This document shows positions 30,203-42,415 of a DNA stretch of 64,000 nt, piece after piece; the first letter of the stretch is position 1; each line of letters begins with the position of its first letter. The stretch is from Catenaria anguillulae PL171 (lineage: Eukaryota; Blastocladiomycota; Blastocladiomycetes; Blastocladiales; Catenariaceae), in assembly GCA_002102555.1 (NCBI GenBank), contig MCFL01000016.1, forward strand, positions 248,001-312,000. Direction: 5' to 3'. The position numbers and the translations under genes are program-made. The notes below the pieces were generated by a model. The model did no database searches, was not told the DNA's origin, and worked only from the letters and a program-made list of their open reading frames with translations.

Positions 30203-30733
30203 TTGACTTCTCCCTCGTTGACTGCCTCAGGGAGACTTGTACATTGTGAGGTTGCTGGTGTAGGCCGATAGTAGTCGCGCGAACGACTCGAGTGACTCAG
30301 GCGAAACCAGGGATGTTGGCAGATGGGGGAAGGAAGCCAAGTCAGGAGCTTGAAAGCAACACGGCCCCGTTTGTTACTGAACTGGTGAACATGAGACATG
30401 ACAAAGATGATGAATGATCAGAGACAACCTGAAACAGGGGTGCCTCTGGTCACGCAAGTTAACTTTGCTGTGGCCACGGCCAGCCAACTGGCTCGTCGCA
30501 GGCCAGCCGTCGCCGATGCGGTCATGCGGTGAATTGCTTGCCTGCTATGAACCGACACTCAATGAAAAAATGGAATTGTAGAGTCACACCGTCGATTCCG
30601 CAAGCGAAGCACGGAACCCGATGGCTCGGGCACAAGTCTCTTCTGCCATACATACAAATGGCGTGCAGTCCCAACGTCTTTTGAGTTGCGCCAACAAGAT
30701 TCATAGACGCAAGACGAATCAAAAGCCATCATC
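30203..30733. other. Intergenic spacer
   Basis: Upstream flank of the long gene at 30.7 kb. No gene or repeat recognised. Confidence 0.4.
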
Positions 30734-33700
30734 ATGACGCCCGATCCGTCACCCGCTGTCCCGGCGATCGTGCCGCCCACATATCCCGGCGGCCTCAACG
30801 ACAAACCGCTGCCGCCACCGCCGCCTCGCCGGTCCAGCCTCAGCAGCCGATCATTTGTCCTCTCCACCGCCTCACCAGGCTCTTCGACGGCGGCATCGTC
30901 CTCGTCATCGTCTCCTTCAACATCCGCTCCTCCATCGCCCGCCGCTCCACTGCCAGCCAATGTCGATGTCCCTGCTGTCGCAGCAGTGTCCGTCACACCG
31001 CTGCCCGCAGAGGCGGACATGGTCCATCCGGTCGAGACGGAAAGCAAGATCGAGAATGGTTTGGCCAAAGCGACCGAGTTGTACGACAAGGCCACGGCAA
31101 TCGCCGAGCAGGTTGACACCATTTCATCCAACCTGGGCGGGGCAAAGCTCGTGGCCGAGTTTCTCGAGTCGGTCGTGTCATCGTTGCCCATGGGTGGTGT
31201 CGTGTGCAAGTGTTTCTCGGTGCGCATGCATTTTGTTTCTCCTACCTTCTCGCGAGCGTTGCATTTCACTGATCCACTCCATCCGGTGACTTTACACGCA
31301 AAACAGATCATGTACGAAGCCCAGCAAACCGCATCCGCCAATGCCGATCTTGCCTCGACCTTGTTCGACCGTGTCACATTTGTCCTCAATACGCTTCGAA
31401 CTCTCTACACCATTGGCAAATGGCAAGTCTCGACGGCTCCGCAAGTCCTGACCACCATCTCGACTGTTATTCAAGACGCGGCCAAATTCTTCCAAGCGTA
31501 CCGAGCCAAATCCTGGTTTCAGAAGCGGTTCTACGGGTCCGACATCCGCAACACCTTCACCTCGCTTGACACGCGCTTGTCCGCGGCCCTCTCTGACCTG
31601 CAACTCGTGCTTCAAATCGAGACGGTTGCCCGGCTCGACCCGCCCGCGCCGTCGCAACTCGCGTCGCGCGAAGATGTGGTGGCCGACCGGTTCATCGCCA
31701 CCCACGGTGGCGCAAAGGCCGTGCAAGCCAACCCGGAGCTCGTCAAGCAACTGGCCGCCGCAGTCGGCACCGAGTTTTCCCCCAAGCTCATGGCCGACAT
31801 TTCGCTCGAATTTGACCAGCTCGAGGCACAGCTCACGGCCGGGTTTCAAAAGACGCTGGATGCAATTGCGGATGTCAGCAGGCAGGTTGCGCAGGTGCAG
31901 GGCGGTGTGGACGAGCTCAAGCGCCGCAACCGCACGTACATGGATATCAAGTGTGCCGAGTTGCGCGACCTGTGGGCGGGCGCTGGGTGGGGGCTGAGGG
32001 TGGATAAGGATTTGTTTGCCGAGACGCTGGTGGCGCAGGTCCGGGCGAGCATTAAGGCGGGCGAGTTGGAGGAACAGTTTGAAGGGTGGGACGATTATAC
32101 CATGGACACGGCGGTCGATTATTGGATCACGTCTATGTCGTACTTGGATTTTGATGGGGTACTGGCGGCTGCTGACTTCACCTCGGTCCATCGACAATCT
32201 AGAAGGCTAACCAGATGTTGATGTAGACATCCGAAGTGTCCGTGGAAGAGCTCAACTCGGGCTTCCCGTTCGACTTGCCGCTCAAGGACTACTTTATGTT
32301 GTGCACATTCTACATGGACAGCTACTCGCGGGAAGCGTACGTCCGTTCCCATGTCTTATGCGTGTTCCACTGACCGACCAAACAGCCGATCAACTCACCT
32401 TGCTCCTCTGCTTGCTGTATATTAGCATCGAATCGCCCGTCTCGACCATTCGCTCGGCCATCCACCTGATCCTGACCATGCCGCCCGCCACGCCTTTTCC
32501 ACGTTTTTGCACCAACTCGTCCCGCACCTGCGGTCGCTGGCCGACTATTGCATCATGCACATGGACTCGCACATGCGCGAGCTCGACGAGGATCTCTATG
32601 AGGCGTGCGTCCAGTATGCCAACGAGCGCCTTGAGCGCGAATGTGAAAAGAATTGGGCGGGCAAAGAGGAAGAGTTTCAAGAGTCCAAGGACGATTTCAC
32701 CAATTATTTCACGTCAAGTGCGACCAATTGGATTGATTGGGGGTTGGGCGATGTGATTGATGAGTTGACTGAGATTGTCAATCAGTTGACGGGGAGGGAG
32801 GACGAGGAAGACGAGTCGGACGAAGAGGAAGAAGAGGGTCCGATGAAGAGGGGTCCGATGAAGAGAAGTCGGATGACGAGGAAGAGCAAGACGAGGAGGT
32901 GGGGGAGAGGCCGAGTCGCCAGCCCAAGGCACGACCGACGAGTCGGAGGAATCGACGGCGCCAGTTGAGGTAGTTGACGAGGAAGATGCTCAAAAAGACG
33001 CGGACGAGTACGAGGACGTCACTGAGGATGAGAATGACGACGAAGACGAATCGTACGTGGGCGAAAAGAAGGCTGTTACGTGGGATCGGCTCAAGCAGTG
33101 CGTCCTCAACCTGCGCTCATTGACACTCAAGTTTGACGAAAAGGTGGTGACACGCTTTGGTGACACTGCCGCCGAGGGCGAGTCTTGGTATGGGTATCTC
33201 GCCACGTTGGGATCCGACGACTGGACCTATCGCGGTACGTCAACCTCTTCCTTGTATCCTCCCATCTGCATGTCCTCACAAGCCCTTGACTCACGATTGA
33301 TCGATCCACCACAGTTGACTTTTGCAATGCCGACTTCAACGTCCCTTTTGCCCTCGCCTCGTGGATGCCGCTCATCAAAAACGCTGGCCCGCCCGAAAAT
33401 GCTATCGTTGGCGGCGTGCTCAATGGCGAGCCCATTTACGTTGCCCGCGCTCACGTCCTGCGCGGAATCGCGACCGATGTGGTGCCCACGTTTGCGTACA
33501 AGGACGGCAAGTCGGGCGAGTGGATCGCCCATGCATCGTGCAAAGGCGTGCATGCGGCGCGCAAAATTGAATGGCTTGTCCGCGGGCGCAACGTGCATGT
33601 GCCGTCGACGGTCGAGGAGCCGGCGAATCGGGTGCTCGAGTGGCACAAGACGACGCTCCAGGAGGCCCCACATCCGCTTGCTGGCTCGGTACGTTTTCGC

Positions 33701-34682: not shown

Positions 34683-35630
34683 CGGGTAACCACTTGATGC
34701 ACTTGTCGCCGCCGCAGCACAACTAGCAGCAGACTGACAGGGGTATCGAATTGTGCGGTTGAAGGTTGCTTGTTGCTTTTTCGTCAAACTGTTTGCTCAA
34801 TGTACATTTCGATTGCATCGTCTCCAGGCTCGGTAGTAAGTTGAATCTGGCTTGCGTGTTCTTCGTTCCCACATCACGCGACCCGACATCGTTAAGGTTC
34901 GATCACTGCCAATACGGGCTACACATAATAGAATGCGGAGTAAATTCCGCATATATTGTAGCAGAAGTACGCATGCATACGTGAGCCCGATCACCGCAAC
35001 CAATCGGCAGCGGATTTGCAGGGACAGTTAACCTTTCTCCCACAGGAATACTTCCAAGTGACCAGGTTGGCATTCAAATACTGGAGCTTCGTCCCACGGG
35101 CCTACGGCCTAGCGCTCGTGACCAGTGCGTCAGTCAGCTCTCGGCAAGTTTGTACTCGTCCCGAAGACAATGAACACTGAGCACTTGGCCAATACCCATC
35201 CTATCCTGTCACCTCCATAAAAGACTTCGAAACCTCAACCGTCCAAGACTGTACGTCCATTATATGGCTCTTCAGCTGCGCCGATCTCCGCACTCCTCAC
35301 GTCGACTCGGACGGAACGTGTCCTTCTTGCTACTCACGCTCGGCGCCGTACATGTACTGTGAATTCTCACCATATGCTAGCGTGAAATCGCTGTACCACT
35401 GTCTCCAGACCAATCCAACTCTCAACTCTCGTTTTTAACTATCACCTGCACCCGATTGCAATTGCGGTCAGCTTCAAACCAGCCGATCGAACGCGTCACG
35501 CACTCGGCAATCCATGCGACACCCTGCTGCCACCACGCCGAATCATCATCATCAATCATCAATTCAAGTATTTCTCGCTTTAAGACCAAAGAAGACGACC
35601 ACCTCATCCATACCATCAGTATCGGCAACA
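34683..35630. other. Intergenic, no supported gene
   Basis: About 950 bases between two plus-strand genes, presumably including the histidine-kinase promoter. A TAAAAG element lies near 35217. No gene or repeat recognised. Confidence 0.45.
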
Positions 35631-38600
35631 ATGTCCGTGTCAACAACGCGGTCAGCGGGCGAGCTGACGGCCATCGTATCCGACGCCCTGATTGCAATTG
35701 CCTACTTTGCCATCCCTTGGTGTGTATCGACTGATACCCGACACTTCTATGCCAGCTTACTTCTGGTCAAAACTTTGTGCATTTCACACTCTAACTCCAC
35801 CCGGACCGATGGTTTCTCTTCCATCATGTGCACAGTCAAATCTTTTACTTTTCGCGACACATTCGCCTTGACGGGCTTCGTGGATCTCCCATGTTTATCG
35901 TGTGGCTCTTCATGGCATTCATCTTGCTTTGTGGCATGACCCACTTCTTCGGCGTATGGCTTGGTGGAGCTTCGACGACCATGACCGTTGCCAAGGCGCT
36001 CACGTACGCATGAAGCATGAAAATCCAACGCTCGCTGGCCGCAAATGTTGAACCCTTATTCCCACACTTACGTGTACAACTTATCTAGTGCTGCTGTCTC
36101 GGTTGCCACCGCTCTCGTACTCGTCCGGCTCATGCCACTCGTCCTCAACCTTCCCGCACGACTGTTTGTTCTTGAAGAAGAACTCGGGCTCCGCATCCAG
36201 AACGAGCGTCTACTTCAACTGGAAAACTCCAACCTGCACAAGCTCCGATCGGTCACGCAATCCATTCGCCGGTCCATGACCTACCAGACTATTTGCGATG
36301 TCGCCACGGTGCAACTTACCAATCACTTTGATTTGGCGGGTTGCTTCATGTTTGCCGTGGACGCACACCATTTGAATCGGGCCACTTGTGTCGCCGAGTA
36401 CGCCAAGGTGCCACATTTGCGGGTGGCCAGCGGTCAGTTGGGTCAGACGAGCTATTCGGGATTGCCATCCAATGTTGGAGCCACGGGCGGGCCTGTTCCC
36501 ATGCAGCAAGTCTCGTTGGCATCCATACGTCGGGGCACACGGATTGATTTGGCACAACTTCTTGCACGGCAGCCAGGTGCCGTTCTTGGTGAAGGTTTCC
36601 CGGACCTAACGCACTTGCTCAAGCGATCCTCCTCGTCCCGACAACGCAAATCATCTTCCCTGTCGTCGTCGTCATCAGCAGCGCCCATGCCTCACTCATC
36701 GTCCACGGATCCCATCCACCCTCCACCAGATTGCATCATGGACATTGAAGACGAGCAACAAAATTCTTCCACTGGGAACGTTCGCTACTGCTCGCAACCA
36801 CCGCTCATGCATGTAATCGGCGGAACGGAAATGACGGCTGCCTCGACTGATCATGCACATTGGGTCCATTTGGATCCGCACTTGATTGAGTCTGTATTTG
36901 GCATTCCCATGTCCCGCGTTGGACCCGGACTGGTCGGCACTCTGGTGCAGGTGTTTGACGGATCCAACATTACGCCATGACCACGCCATGGCCACGCCCA
37001 TGAATGCACCCTTGTCTCCCAACAATGGCACGGCGACCCGTGACAACATGACGGCGAATTTGTCGCAAGATCAGCTTCCCTCTCGTCGGCAACGCACCGA
37101 TACAATCCCTACGACTACAACCACTGGCACAGTACCTAGTCTCTCGTCTGGTTCGGGTACTTCCTTGTACCAAGCCTCGGCCGAGGGCAAACGTACAATC
37201 ATGCTCTTGCTTCATGAGCCCGACACGGTCCGTACGCAAGGTCCGGTCTTGGCCGATGCCGTTGGCCAAGTCGAAATTGCTCTTGATCAATCGGTGCAAA
37301 TCGAACGGGACTTGGGGCGACGTGCTCAAGTATCGGTGCTGGAGCGCGAAAAGCGCGAGGCTGAGGCACTGAATGGCATGAAGACAGTGTTTCTGGCCAC
37401 CATTTCCCACGAGCTGCGCACGCCCATGAATGCCATTATCGGATTTGTGGATCTCTTGTTGTCGCAGCATGAGCTGTCAAGAGACATGCGCGACATTTTG
37501 GAAATTGTGGCCGTGTCGTCCAACTCGCTCTTGAACCTGGTCAACGACATTTTGGATTTGAGCAAGCTCGAGTTTCACGGCAACCAGTTTGCGCTCGAAG
37601 AGGCACCCATTTCCATCACCGATGTTGTGGAGCAATCAATCGAGGTAGTATACCCGGTCGCAGAGCGCAAGGGAATCCAAGTTGCTGCCGTCTTGAATCA
37701 TGCCGTTGACGCTGTCCTCGGTGACAAGCTTCGCGTCCGTCAAGTCCTCGTCAATCTCTTATCGAATGCCATCAAGTTTACTCCTAACGGATGCGTATCG
37801 TTGACCGTCACGTCGGCCGAGCCCGAAACGTACTATGTGACGGCCGAAGGTGCAAAGCAACGAAAGCAGCGGATCTTGGACTTTTATGCGCCGCGGCAGG
37901 CCAGTGGGTCCATTCCCGAGACGGTCACAACCATGGCCACGGTCGGGTCAGTTCCGTCGCCGCCGTCCATGCGCATTTTTTTCCAGGTCCGCGATTCTGG
38001 GATCGGTATTGCACAGGACAAGATCCACTTGCTGTTTGAAAAGTTCCAGCAGCTTGATGCCACTATTGCGCGACGATTCCAGGGCACGGGGTTGGGGTTG
38101 GCCATCACATCTCGGCTCGTGGAGCTACACCGTGGAAGGATCATTGTCGATTCGGTGCCTGGCGTCGGGACGCTCTTTACCATTATGTTGTGTTTCCCAC
38201 CAAACTTGGACTTGACTCAGCAACAAGGACCCGCTTCACCAGGTTCGAGCTTGTTTGCCGCACCGAGCAGCCCGACCAAGCCGAGTGCCCTTCAGTTGAC
38301 GCATCTCGAAGGCGGCGTGTCATTGCCCTCGTCGGCTGAGGTGACGCCCGTGAATGATGTCCCAGTTGTTCTCACTGGATTGCGCGTCGGCGTGATTTCA
38401 GCGCCCAATGTCGAAATGGCCGCACTCAAGTCGATGCTCCGCCGGCTCCAATGCATTCCCATTGAGCTCTTGTCTGTTCCTGCGCCGCCGCCTACAGAAC
38501 CACTTTCACAAGTCGCGGCCACAGCGGCGATCCGCCCCGCACACTCCACGGCTCCCTTGGCATACGACGTGCTCATTGTCAACGAACCGATTGCCACTGA

Positions 38601-39834
38601 CGCCATGACGTCGGACGACTACTCGGCGCTTTGCAAATGGGCTCGGCACTTGCCCGTCGTGGGAATCGCCAAGCTCAAGGCCGCCGTGGCTACTGGGAAC
38701 AACTCTCTACCATCGTCTCCTCAGGCCCAGTCGGCTCGGTCACTCAAGAACGACTGTGCCTGTGGTGGTTTCAACATCACCAAACCCGTGCGCCTTCGCG
38801 TTCTCGAATCCACCTTGCGAACGGCCATTCAAGAGTTCCGGAAACCTCGACCGATTACCGTTCCTTCGCCTCATCGTGACCTCAATACTCCACCACCTCT
38901 TACCACGAACGAAATCACGGTTGATGGCGGCAGCAGTAACACGCCGCTTCTGACGCTCAACGACAAGTTGCTTCCAACGCCTTCATCGTCAGTAGAGCCT
39001 CACACGCTGGCACCGCAGTCGCCCAGCCGCCCTTCGCGCTCGGCCTCGCCAACGCCCAACTCGTCGCCCATATCGGCCAACATTGATCCGCGGTACAGCC
39101 ATCTCAAGGTGCTCATTGTCGACGACAACAACATCAACCAAATGGTCGCCGTTCGTACGTTGCGCTCAATTGGCGTGACCAACGTCAACACGGCCAACAA
39201 TGGCGCCGAAGCCGTCGCCTACGTCGAGGCGCACCCGGACGTAGATGTTGTCTTCATGGACGTGTCCATGCCCGTCATGGATGGGCTGGAGGCCACGCGC
39301 GCAATCTTGGCCAATGCAGCGGCCAAAGTGGTGATGTTTGGTGTCAAGCCCGTCCTGTTGGGTCGCAGGACAAGCAACTCAACAGCCGTCAGTCGGTCAC
39401 CAAGTCATTCCAACCTGGGTGTTCCTGGTTCCATTCCGCCCGTGTTTGATGGATCAGACGGAATACACGGCAAGGGACTTCCATTCATTTGCGCCATGAC
39501 GGCGAGCGCATTACCGGAGGAGCGGACAACGTGTTTGAATACGGGCATGCATGACTTTGTGCCCAAGCCGATCCGCAGGAACGATTTGTTGGAGGTATTG
39601 GGGAGGTATTGCGTGTGGCGGGATGCACGTCCGGTTCCCACACCAGCACAAGAGGCCGCCGTGGCCGCGGCGTTAGCTGCAGCCAACGGAACGACTAGAT
39701 TAGGGCCAGCTGCTGCTGGTGCTGTAACGCAGCCGTCGTCGCTTTCCCCAACAGCAGCGCTTGTCAATGGGGCGCTACCGTCGCCACCCGCAGAGGGCTC
39801 AAGACAACCCGATCCGCGGGCGCCAAGCCCATAA
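35631..39834 (+). CDS. Hybrid histidine kinase with ethylene-receptor-like sensor
   Basis: Exons 35631-35719, 35836-36003 and 36089-39834, about 1,334 residues with two missing bases allowed near 36978 and 36987. Three membrane helices at residues 14-115 match plant ethylene receptors: SDALIAIAYFAIP, then LLCGMTHFFGVW, then ALTAAVSVATALVLV. Asp18, Tyr25, Pro29, Cys62 and His66 correspond to Asp25, Tyr32, Pro36, Cys65 and His69 of Arabidopsis ETR1, the copper and ethylene site. A GAF domain follows, then a coiled coil, HisKA (FLATISHELRTPMNAIIGF), HATPase with LVNLLSNAIKFTP, DSGIGIA and GTGLGLA, a degenerate receiver, and a true receiver (VLIVDDNNINQ, phospho-acceptor in VVFMDVSMPVMDG, lysine in FVPKPI). 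It should autophosphorylate and relay through an HPt protein in response to a membrane-sensed ligand. Ethylene binding itself is inference. Confidence 0.9.
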
Positions 39835-40509: not shown

Positions 40510-40515
40510 ATGTAC

Positions 40516-40590
40516 AGCAACACCCAGGAATCGAACCCAGGCCGTTGAGACCGGCACATGCACGCCTAACGTGTGGACCACCACGACTGC
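40516..40590 (-). tRNA. tRNA-like sequence, possibly a pseudogene or SINE head
   Basis: 75 bases on the minus strand with a perfect Pol III B box (GGTTCGATTCC at 40537-40527) and a T arm CTGGG-TTCGATT-CCTGG. The acceptor pairs only partly (GCAGTCG with GTGTTGC). The D and anticodon arms do not fold into a standard cloverleaf, so no anticodon can be assigned. It is best read as a decayed tRNA or tRNA-derived repeat. Confidence 0.3.
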
Positions 40591-40738
40591 TTACCAATTG
40601 TAACTTTTGATCAGCTTTGTTCCACAATTGCCATGACTCGTAACCAAAACCGAAATCGACGATGTACGGAAAAACTCCATGGGCACGCTTGAACATGAAA
40701 ATTATACACATCAAAACCCATCCAGCCATCCACGAACA

Positions 40739-42415
40739 TTACTTGCTCTCGACCTTGATTGCCGCAACGTCCTGGTCCACATGCACCGAGTCCTCATGCC
40801 ACCCCTTTGCCTTGAGCTGGACCATGAACGCATCAAAGTCGTCCATGACTTTGCCAGAATCCGCCATGGACGCAGCAAAGTACCCTCGCAATATGGCCCG
40901 AGGTTCAGCGCCATGCACCATCCACACTCGCTTGTTGCCGCCCAAGACAAATCCTTGCTTGCCCACCAAGCTCGCCTCCCATGCAACTGCATTCTGACTT
41001 GACGTTGCCACATGCACGAGTTCGGTCAATGGCGGATTCACACGCACAGGCGACACATACTGCGTGACAAACCGTTCTTGCACCGCCACCGCCTCTGGCG
41101 TCGGAACCTGCCTCGCACGGCTCCACTTTTGCAAAATCAAATCGAGCCGTTGGGCGTTGAGCGTGCGCGTGACAACGGCATTGTTGGACTGAACTACAGA
41201 CCACAGCGTGAGTGCCGAGAAAGGTACAAATGTGGCGAGAATCGGCAGAAAGTCGTGGCCGACTTGTGAGCTGATGATGACGCCGAGACCCGTGCCAACG
41301 ACGCCTGCAGCCGTTGCTTGCGACCCGGCCTTGCCCGTGATGTCCCCGAGGTTGTCGTGCAGGGCAAAGGTTTGGTTGATTTGTGCGCGGGTTGCCGACG
41401 AGGCAAGCCAGGCCACGTTTTTCCCTGGGACAGCGGGAGTTAGCAAATGTATAAGTGTGGGTGACACTCATAGATGAGGAAGAAAACGATCAGTACGAAC
41501 CGACATTGGAAATACTCGCAATTGGAAGAAAAAGGTGTGGAAAGAGTGGGGTCAAGAGTTCAAGAAACGATGCGGCTTGCATGGCGGCTGCAGCCGTGAG
41601 CCGGAGGCGCTTTGGCTCGCTGTCAAACTTTTCGCCCATGAAGCTGGCGTACAGGACGCCACCGAGTTGGCCCAGCCCGTCCTTGATGATCCAATTGAGG
41701 GCCGCGGCTGAGCAGAGGCGACAAGGGAGGGGGTCGTGTGTGTGTGAGCACTCGTGTTTCGAACAATAACTTGAGCAGGTCAGTCCGACATACCAAGCGG
41801 GATCGACCCCGCACCAAGTCCAATGGCGAAAAGAAGTGATTGCATCGATAGAACTGTTGCATTTTCAAGTCGCAGTCAGCCTCAGCCCGCCATTCATCCC
41901 TCATTCGAAAAGCAGACCGTTTGTGTACCCCCGGTCACAGTTCCCGCCACGGAATGTATAAATGACCACTGCGTATATCTCAAGTATCCCGGGGCGACAC
42001 TGAGCGGATAATTGGCAGGGAAGAATGTAGCCACGATCGTCTTTTTCGACCGCCGAATCAACCCTTCTCGCGACACGAGCTGCGTTGTGGGTGGGTGCTG
42101 GCCGTTGCGTCACCACCAGCGGGCGAGCCTCTGCTGACGTTGTTGCACCGGTGGAAGGAATCGTAGCTTGGAGGATCGTCTTGGATCGGATCGTCGACAG
42201 GCGAATCGGGCCCAAAGTGACGGGCGGCGCCTGCGTAATGATCACCTCCGCACTCGCACTCGACAGCGGCTGGCCGTCGGTGCGTGACGGTTGAGAGGGC
42301 GCATGGGTGACTGATGTGTATGGCCGCGGGTTCCATGCTCGTTGCGCCAGCCGCGGTTGGGGTACGGGCGCGCGCCAAGCAACCGCCTGCTCGAAAAAGG
42401 ACTGCTGCCGGACAT
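40739..42415 (-). CDS. RUS1/DUF647 (root UV-B sensitive-like) protein
   Basis: Exons about 42415-41929, 41853-41794, 41707-41501 and 41424-40739, about 480 residues. Family landmarks: FFPANYPLSVAPGYLRYTQW, SMQSLLFAIGLG, ALNWIIKDGLGQLGGVLYAS, MGEKFDSEPKRLRL and LTPLFPHLFLPIASISNVGK, followed by ATRAQINQTFALHDNLGDIT and KAGSQATAAGVVGTGLGV. RUS proteins are conserved membrane-associated proteins of plants, fungi and animals (human RUSF1). Plant members affect UV-B response, auxin and vitamin B6-linked processes; the fungal role is not established. Splice phases agree across all three introns. The N-terminal exon has about three single-base losses at 42070-42400, so the start is uncertain: 42415 (MSGSSPFSSRRLLGARPYPN, leader-like) or 42489. 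Confidence 0.85.

What the first reader, a model, noticed from the sequence alone, without database searches (positions are those of the whole stretch)
35631..39834. Ethylene-receptor-like hybrid histidine kinase in a fungal genome
Seen: three N-terminal helices with Asp18, Tyr25, Pro29, Cys62 and His66, which keep the Asp-to-Tyr, Asp-to-Pro and Cys-to-His spacing of plant ETR1 (25/32/36/65/69), followed by GAF, HisKA, HATPase and receiver. Known: Cys65 and His69 hold copper in ETR1, and ethylene-receptor homologues have been reported in early-diverging fungi. Inferred: this fungus may sense ethylene or a related small molecule. The copper ligands are intact, so binding is plausible.
Basis: partly seen in the sequence, partly recalled or inferred. 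Interest (0 to 1): 0.8.

Follow-up and report, generated by a model that had tools for sequence, protein, structure and literature searches.

The report
Fungal ethylene-receptor-like hybrid kinase, already catalogued
This gene of the swimming-spore fungus Catenaria anguillulae encodes a membrane sensor kinase built like the plant ethylene receptor, with the copper- and ethylene-binding residues intact; such fungal receptors were described in print in 2017, and whether this one really senses ethylene is untested.

Summary
Window 35631-39834 encodes a hybrid histidine kinase whose residues 14-107 match Pfam ETR1_N at E 2.3e-22. The seven residues needed for ethylene binding in ETR1 have counterparts (D18, Y25, I28, P29, I59, C62, H66), as has K91 (K83). 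HisKA, HATPase and receiver signatures are intact. The organism is Catenaria anguillulae PL171 (protein BCR44DRAFT_1525761). Herivaux et al. 2017 (PMC5285503) already name two ethylene-receptor homologues of this strain, CaHHK1 and CaHHK2; a genome search finds two loci, so this gene is almost certainly one of them.

Added or corrected: the GAF is not recognised by Pfam; a degenerate receiver lies between kinase and true receiver; the public gene model leaves out two stretches that relatives keep, and the splice near 36950-37075 is unresolved; a paralogue keeps the key residues. Likeliest mechanism: Cu(I)-dependent binding of ethylene or a similar small ligand controls a His-Asp phosphorelay. 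Ethylene binding is inferred, not shown.

The parts
35631..35719 (+). Exon 1 of the model: N-terminus and transmembrane helix 1 (D18, Y25, I28, P29). The annotated protein starts 39 residues further up, at 35514.
35720..35835 (+). Intron 1 (GT-AG, 116 nt), same as in the annotated model
35836..36003 (+). Exon 2: helix 2 with the copper-ligand pair C62 (35930-35932) and H66 (35942-35944), start of helix 3 with K83 (35993-35995)
36004..36088 (+). Intron 2 (GT-AG, 85 nt); an inferred intron of the paralogue on C57 sits at the same place, in the Thr codon of K-x-x-T-A
35670..36152 (+). Ethylene-receptor sensor domain, Pfam ETR1_N, residues 14-107 (span includes introns 1 and 2)
36243..37348 (+). 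GAF-like region, about residues 138-465, with a long low-complexity insert; below Pfam detection
36951..37074 (+). Assumed intron 3, one of 22 GT-AG choices listed that keep the frame. The annotated model instead leaves out about 36435-36578 and 36891-36951, both with coding counterparts in relatives. Unresolved.
37381..37572 (+). HisKA (residues 476-539) with phospho-acceptor H485
37753..38193 (+). HATPase_c from the N box on: NLLSNAIKF, DSGIGI, LFEKF, GTGLGL present
38341..38865 (+). Degenerate receiver: predicted receiver fold, no acidic pair after strand 1, Asn at the strand 3 phospho-acceptor position (Asp there in P0002 and P0003), Lys kept
   Evidence: Receiver_CRE1 matches 3 of 10 members of A1 weakly, best E 0.01
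39109..39600 (+). True receiver: D1056, D1057, phospho-acceptor D1102, T1182, K1204; long insert ahead of T1182

Best explanation
A hybrid histidine kinase of the ethylene-receptor type in the zoosporic fungus Catenaria anguillulae. Three membrane helices form a copper site from C62 and H66 (with D18 and K83 nearby), which most likely binds ethylene or a very similar small molecule. Binding changes the helix-linker-GAF-like dimer and alters autophosphorylation of H485. The phosphate passes to D1102 of the C-terminal receiver and on to an HPt protein. The degenerate receiver in between probably acts as a spacer or allosteric element. Shown here: sequence family of the sensor, intact ligand residues, intact kinase and receiver residues. 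Inferred: copper loading, ethylene binding, dimer motion, direction of the response, downstream partner.
Against: I found no assay of any early-diverging fungal member (paper searches); a 2022 paper says that it is unknown whether they sense ethylene (PMC9603746, passages). The pocket residues are conserved over very different bacteria, so other ligands are possible. The GAF is not recognised by Pfam. The frame between 36951 and 37074 needs an unproven intron, or there is a frameshift in the assembly or the gene. AlphaFold confidence in the membrane helices is moderate at best (block means 56-78 mostly).
Confidence: 0.7

Rival explanations
1. The fold and copper site are kept, but the ligand is not ethylene: the receptor senses another small olefin or volatile, or copper or redox state itself.
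For: The same residues are conserved over bacteria, plants and fungi with very different lives. By the residue numbers the stretch between helix 1 Pro and helix 2 Ile is 4 residues longer here (29 to 59) than in ETR1 (36 to 62). The species is described as a saprotroph on decaying plant material and facultative parasite of nematodes (PMC5285503, passage).
Against: All seven residues needed for ethylene binding in ETR1 have counterparts, and a bacterial member with the same seven binds ethylene (PMC11819568).
Confidence: 0.2
2. A decaying or non-functional receptor: the reading-frame break at 36951-37074 is real and no full-length kinase is made.
For: Reading on past 36950 in frame gives VFDG, resembling VYDG of Blastocladiella P0002 and P0003, then a stop at 36978-36980. 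No GT lies between VFDG and that stop (sequence).
Against: Kinase and receiver signature residues are intact over 37075-39834. 22 GT-AG introns in the range scanned restore the frame, and the depositors' model also gives an open 1304 aa protein.
Confidence: 0.07

Closest known systems
CaHHK1 / CaHHK2 of Catenaria anguillulae PL171 (Herivaux et al. 2017, PMC5285503)
   Same: Same strain; two ethylene-receptor homologues named there, two ETR1_N loci here. This gene is almost certainly one of them.
   Different: I could not tell which of the two; figures and supplements were not readable here.
Allomyces macrogynus AMAG_07058 (P0006), named among the ethylene-receptor homologues in PMC5285503
   Same: Same domain order, 65% identity over the sensor; in one starred clade of six with this gene.
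   Different: Different low-complexity inserts in the GAF-like region and the linkers.
Arabidopsis ETR1 and plant ethylene receptors
   Same: ETR1_N sensor, kinase core, C-terminal receiver; seven binding residues and K91.
   Different: An extra degenerate receiver (ETR1 is described with one receiver), a larger protein, and a GAF below detection, whereas the ten named plant rows carry Pfam GAF.
AHK4/CRE1 cytokinin-receptor first receiver (Pfam Receiver_CRE1)
   Same: A degenerate receiver ahead of the true one; 3 of 10 members of A1 match it weakly, best E 0.01.
   Different: The sensor is ETR1_N, not CHASE.

Membership tests
Ethylene receptor (ETR1 type) | N-terminal three-helix ethylene-binding domain (ETR1_N) | tested here: met
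   Pfam E 2.3e-22, above cut-off; three hydrophobic stretches; helices 11-45, 52-78, 83-111 in the model of relative P0003
Ethylene receptor (ETR1 type) | Seven residues needed for ethylene binding in ETR1, with the Cu(I) ligands Cys and His | tested here: met
   D18, Y25, I28, P29, I59, C62, H66 present; conserved in most of 134 sensors. That there are seven is from PMC11819568. Of their names D25, C65 and H69 (and K91) are, Y32 and P36 in the finding; I35 and I62 are recalled.
Ethylene receptor (ETR1 type) | GAF domain after the sensor | tested here: inconclusive
   No Pfam match; PF01590 in 1 of 10 members of A1 at E 0.12, GAF_2 in 1 at 0.19; hhalign to a plant region over 55 columns, E 8e-4 but probability 24%; helix-strand order of the P0003 model fits a GAF
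Ethylene receptor (ETR1 type), subfamily 1 | Histidine kinase core with intact H, N, G1, F, G2 boxes | tested here: met
Ethylene receptor (ETR1 type) | Copper-dependent, saturable ethylene binding | not testable with these tools
   needs a binding assay
Hybrid histidine kinase | Receiver with Asp pair, phospho-acceptor Asp, Thr and Lys | tested here: met
   D1056, D1057, D1102, T1182, K1204

The most novel reading that the evidence does not exclude
Blastocladiomycota use a true high-affinity ethylene receptor, with a working kinase and an added degenerate receiver, to steer swimming zoospores towards decaying plant matter or other ethylene sources; the hormone's receptor would then serve as a chemotaxis sensor in a flagellated fungus.
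Probability: 0.15. Interest if true: 0.65.

Novelty: already known. Interest (0 to 1): 0.25.

Why it matters
If the fungal receptors bind ethylene, ethylene sensing would be shared by bacteria, plants and early fungal branches, and would bear on how early fungi found plants. That hypothesis was published in 2017 (PMC5285503). What I did not find in the searches is a binding assay for an early-diverging fungal member; this gene, with an intact-looking kinase and the key residues kept, is a good candidate for one.

Tried and rejected
PDB sequence search with residues 1-144: no related chain, only two antibody chains at E 0.35 and 1.2, so no overlay on a solved sensor was possible. PMC12643061 states that full-length ETR1, membrane part included, has not been crystallised (passages).

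Sensor tree: fungi, plants and the remaining (bacterial or unnamed) rows are each one side of a branch. It is unrooted, 123 columns, and the tool warns that long branches meet, so it says nothing firm on whether the fungal genes came from plants or bacteria. Of 134 sensors I used 94: P0007, P0008 and P0014 were dropped for broken or odd sensors, and 37 of the 112 other non-plant, non-fungal or unnamed rows were left out by list order. The 134 come from two searches: 14 hits and the 120 listed of 146 hits.

Neighbours: no two-component or ethylene gene recognised among 20 ORFs scanned with Pfam of the 42 listed, two of which are this gene.

Rfam at gathering threshold on the window: one tRNA only.

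Papers: searches. PMC5285503 is the only held paper with both 'ethylene receptor' and 'Catenaria anguillulae'. Of it I saw outline and abstract, passages and section 6 in full, not figures or supplements. PMC9603746, PMC11819568, PMC12643061 and PMC12988820: passages only. Other listed papers: search listing only.

Full report
What the sequence holds. Exons 35631-35719 and 35836-36003 splice through GT-AG introns to an exon beginning at 36089. With an assumed third intron at 36951-37074 the gene encodes 1292 residues. Residues 14-107 match Pfam ETR1_N at 79.5 bits, E 2.3e-22; HisKA, HATPase_c and Response_reg also exceed their cut-offs.

Identity. The protein search returned the annotated protein itself: BCR44DRAFT_1525761 of Catenaria anguillulae PL171, 1304 aa, on a contig of 504426 bases, the length of contig C68 on which the window lies. 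Of the 14 hits, nine more are proteins of Blastocladiella, Allomyces and Sorochytrium and four are bacterial or unnamed PAS-type kinases. All 10 members of alignment A1 (the annotated protein and the nine) match the same four Pfam families at E <= 1.

Prior knowledge. Herivaux et al. 2017 (PMC5285503; outline and abstract, passages, section 6) list Catenaria CaHHK1 and CaHHK2 and Allomyces AMAG_07058 among ethylene-receptor homologues of early-diverging fungi and state that the homologues display the three helices with the crucial residues. A six-frame search of the window's genome with ETR1_N finds two places, this gene and G000:C57:356553-356690, matching the two names; the tool calls its counts lower bounds for large families. 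The finding is a rediscovery. A 2022 paper says that it is unknown whether these fungal proteins sense ethylene, and itself reports ethylene binding by two hybrid kinases of the mushroom Agaricus bisporus (PMC9603746, passages).

Conservation. In 134 sensors (this gene, its paralogue and 132 retrieved proteins, all picked by similarity, so conservation is favoured) D is kept in 133, Y in 133, first I in 132, P in 125, second I in 132, C in 132, H in 134 and K in 105; 38 of 134 differ from this gene at one or more of the eight, most often K to R or Q. The two without Cys are P0008, whose sensor is broken in its gene model, and P0014. Sensor identity of this gene is 67-68% to Blastocladiella P0002 and P0003, 65% to Allomyces P0006, 45% to its own paralogue and 36-44% to ten named plant proteins.

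Paralogue. On C57 a sensor spliced by GT-AG and homology reads through with D, Y, I, P, I, C, H and K kept. It groups with Blastocladiella P0010 at 100/98, while this gene falls with P0002-P0006 at 99/86. One inferred intron sits at the same place in both paralogues, in the Thr codon of K-x-x-T-A; the other sensor intron of each is not shared. That fits an old duplication, but no RNA evidence was used.

A gene-model problem. The annotated protein leaves out about 36435-36578 and about 36891-36951. Relatives have similar sequence at both places (around RIDL in Allomyces, and VFGI...GTL.QV.DG in Blastocladiella), so both look coding. But reading on past 36950 meets a stop at 36978-36980. Either an intron starts near 36951, or there is a one-base difference in assembly or gene, or the depositors' splicing is right. 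RNA evidence is needed.

Mechanism. The kinase boxes and receiver residues are intact, so an active phosphorelay is likely. The genome has HPt matches at two places, HisKA at ten, CHASE at eight, and pieces of heavy-metal or other P-type ATPases, none over the family cut-off and only 13 of 97 candidates scored. Several places come in pairs with near-equal scores on two contigs and may be two haplotypes; I did not test that. Ethylene as ligand rests on the conserved residues and on the bacterial precedent AzoEtr1 (PMC11819568, passages).

Verdict. Confirmed observation, sound interpretation, already in print for this strain. The open question, ethylene binding by an early-diverging fungal receptor, needs a bench assay.

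Noticed in passing
window 30707-32218, + strand: ORF with a match to the MLKL N-terminal helical domain (PF22215, E 1.6e-8, 34.6 bits against a cut-off of 27); unexpected to me in a fungus.
   Followed up: no
window 40742-41467, - strand: RUS / UVB-sensitive family protein (PF04884, E 6.2e-23), tail-to-tail with the receptor gene.
   Followed up: no
window 40515-40600, - strand: Looks by eye like a tRNA relic; neither ARAGORN nor Rfam at gathering threshold calls it.
   Followed up: partly
G000 contig pairs C8/C273, C131/C412, C27/C430, C69/C413, C81/C201, C13/C418: HPt, HisKA or CHASE matches come in pairs with equal or near-equal scores on two contigs, as if two haplotypes were assembled in part; the two ETR1_N loci show no such twin.
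   Followed up: no
P0008 (Allomyces arbusculus) and P0007 (Allomyces javanicus) sensors: Their deposited models carry extra residues inside the sensor, at places that look like unspliced introns.
   Followed up: no
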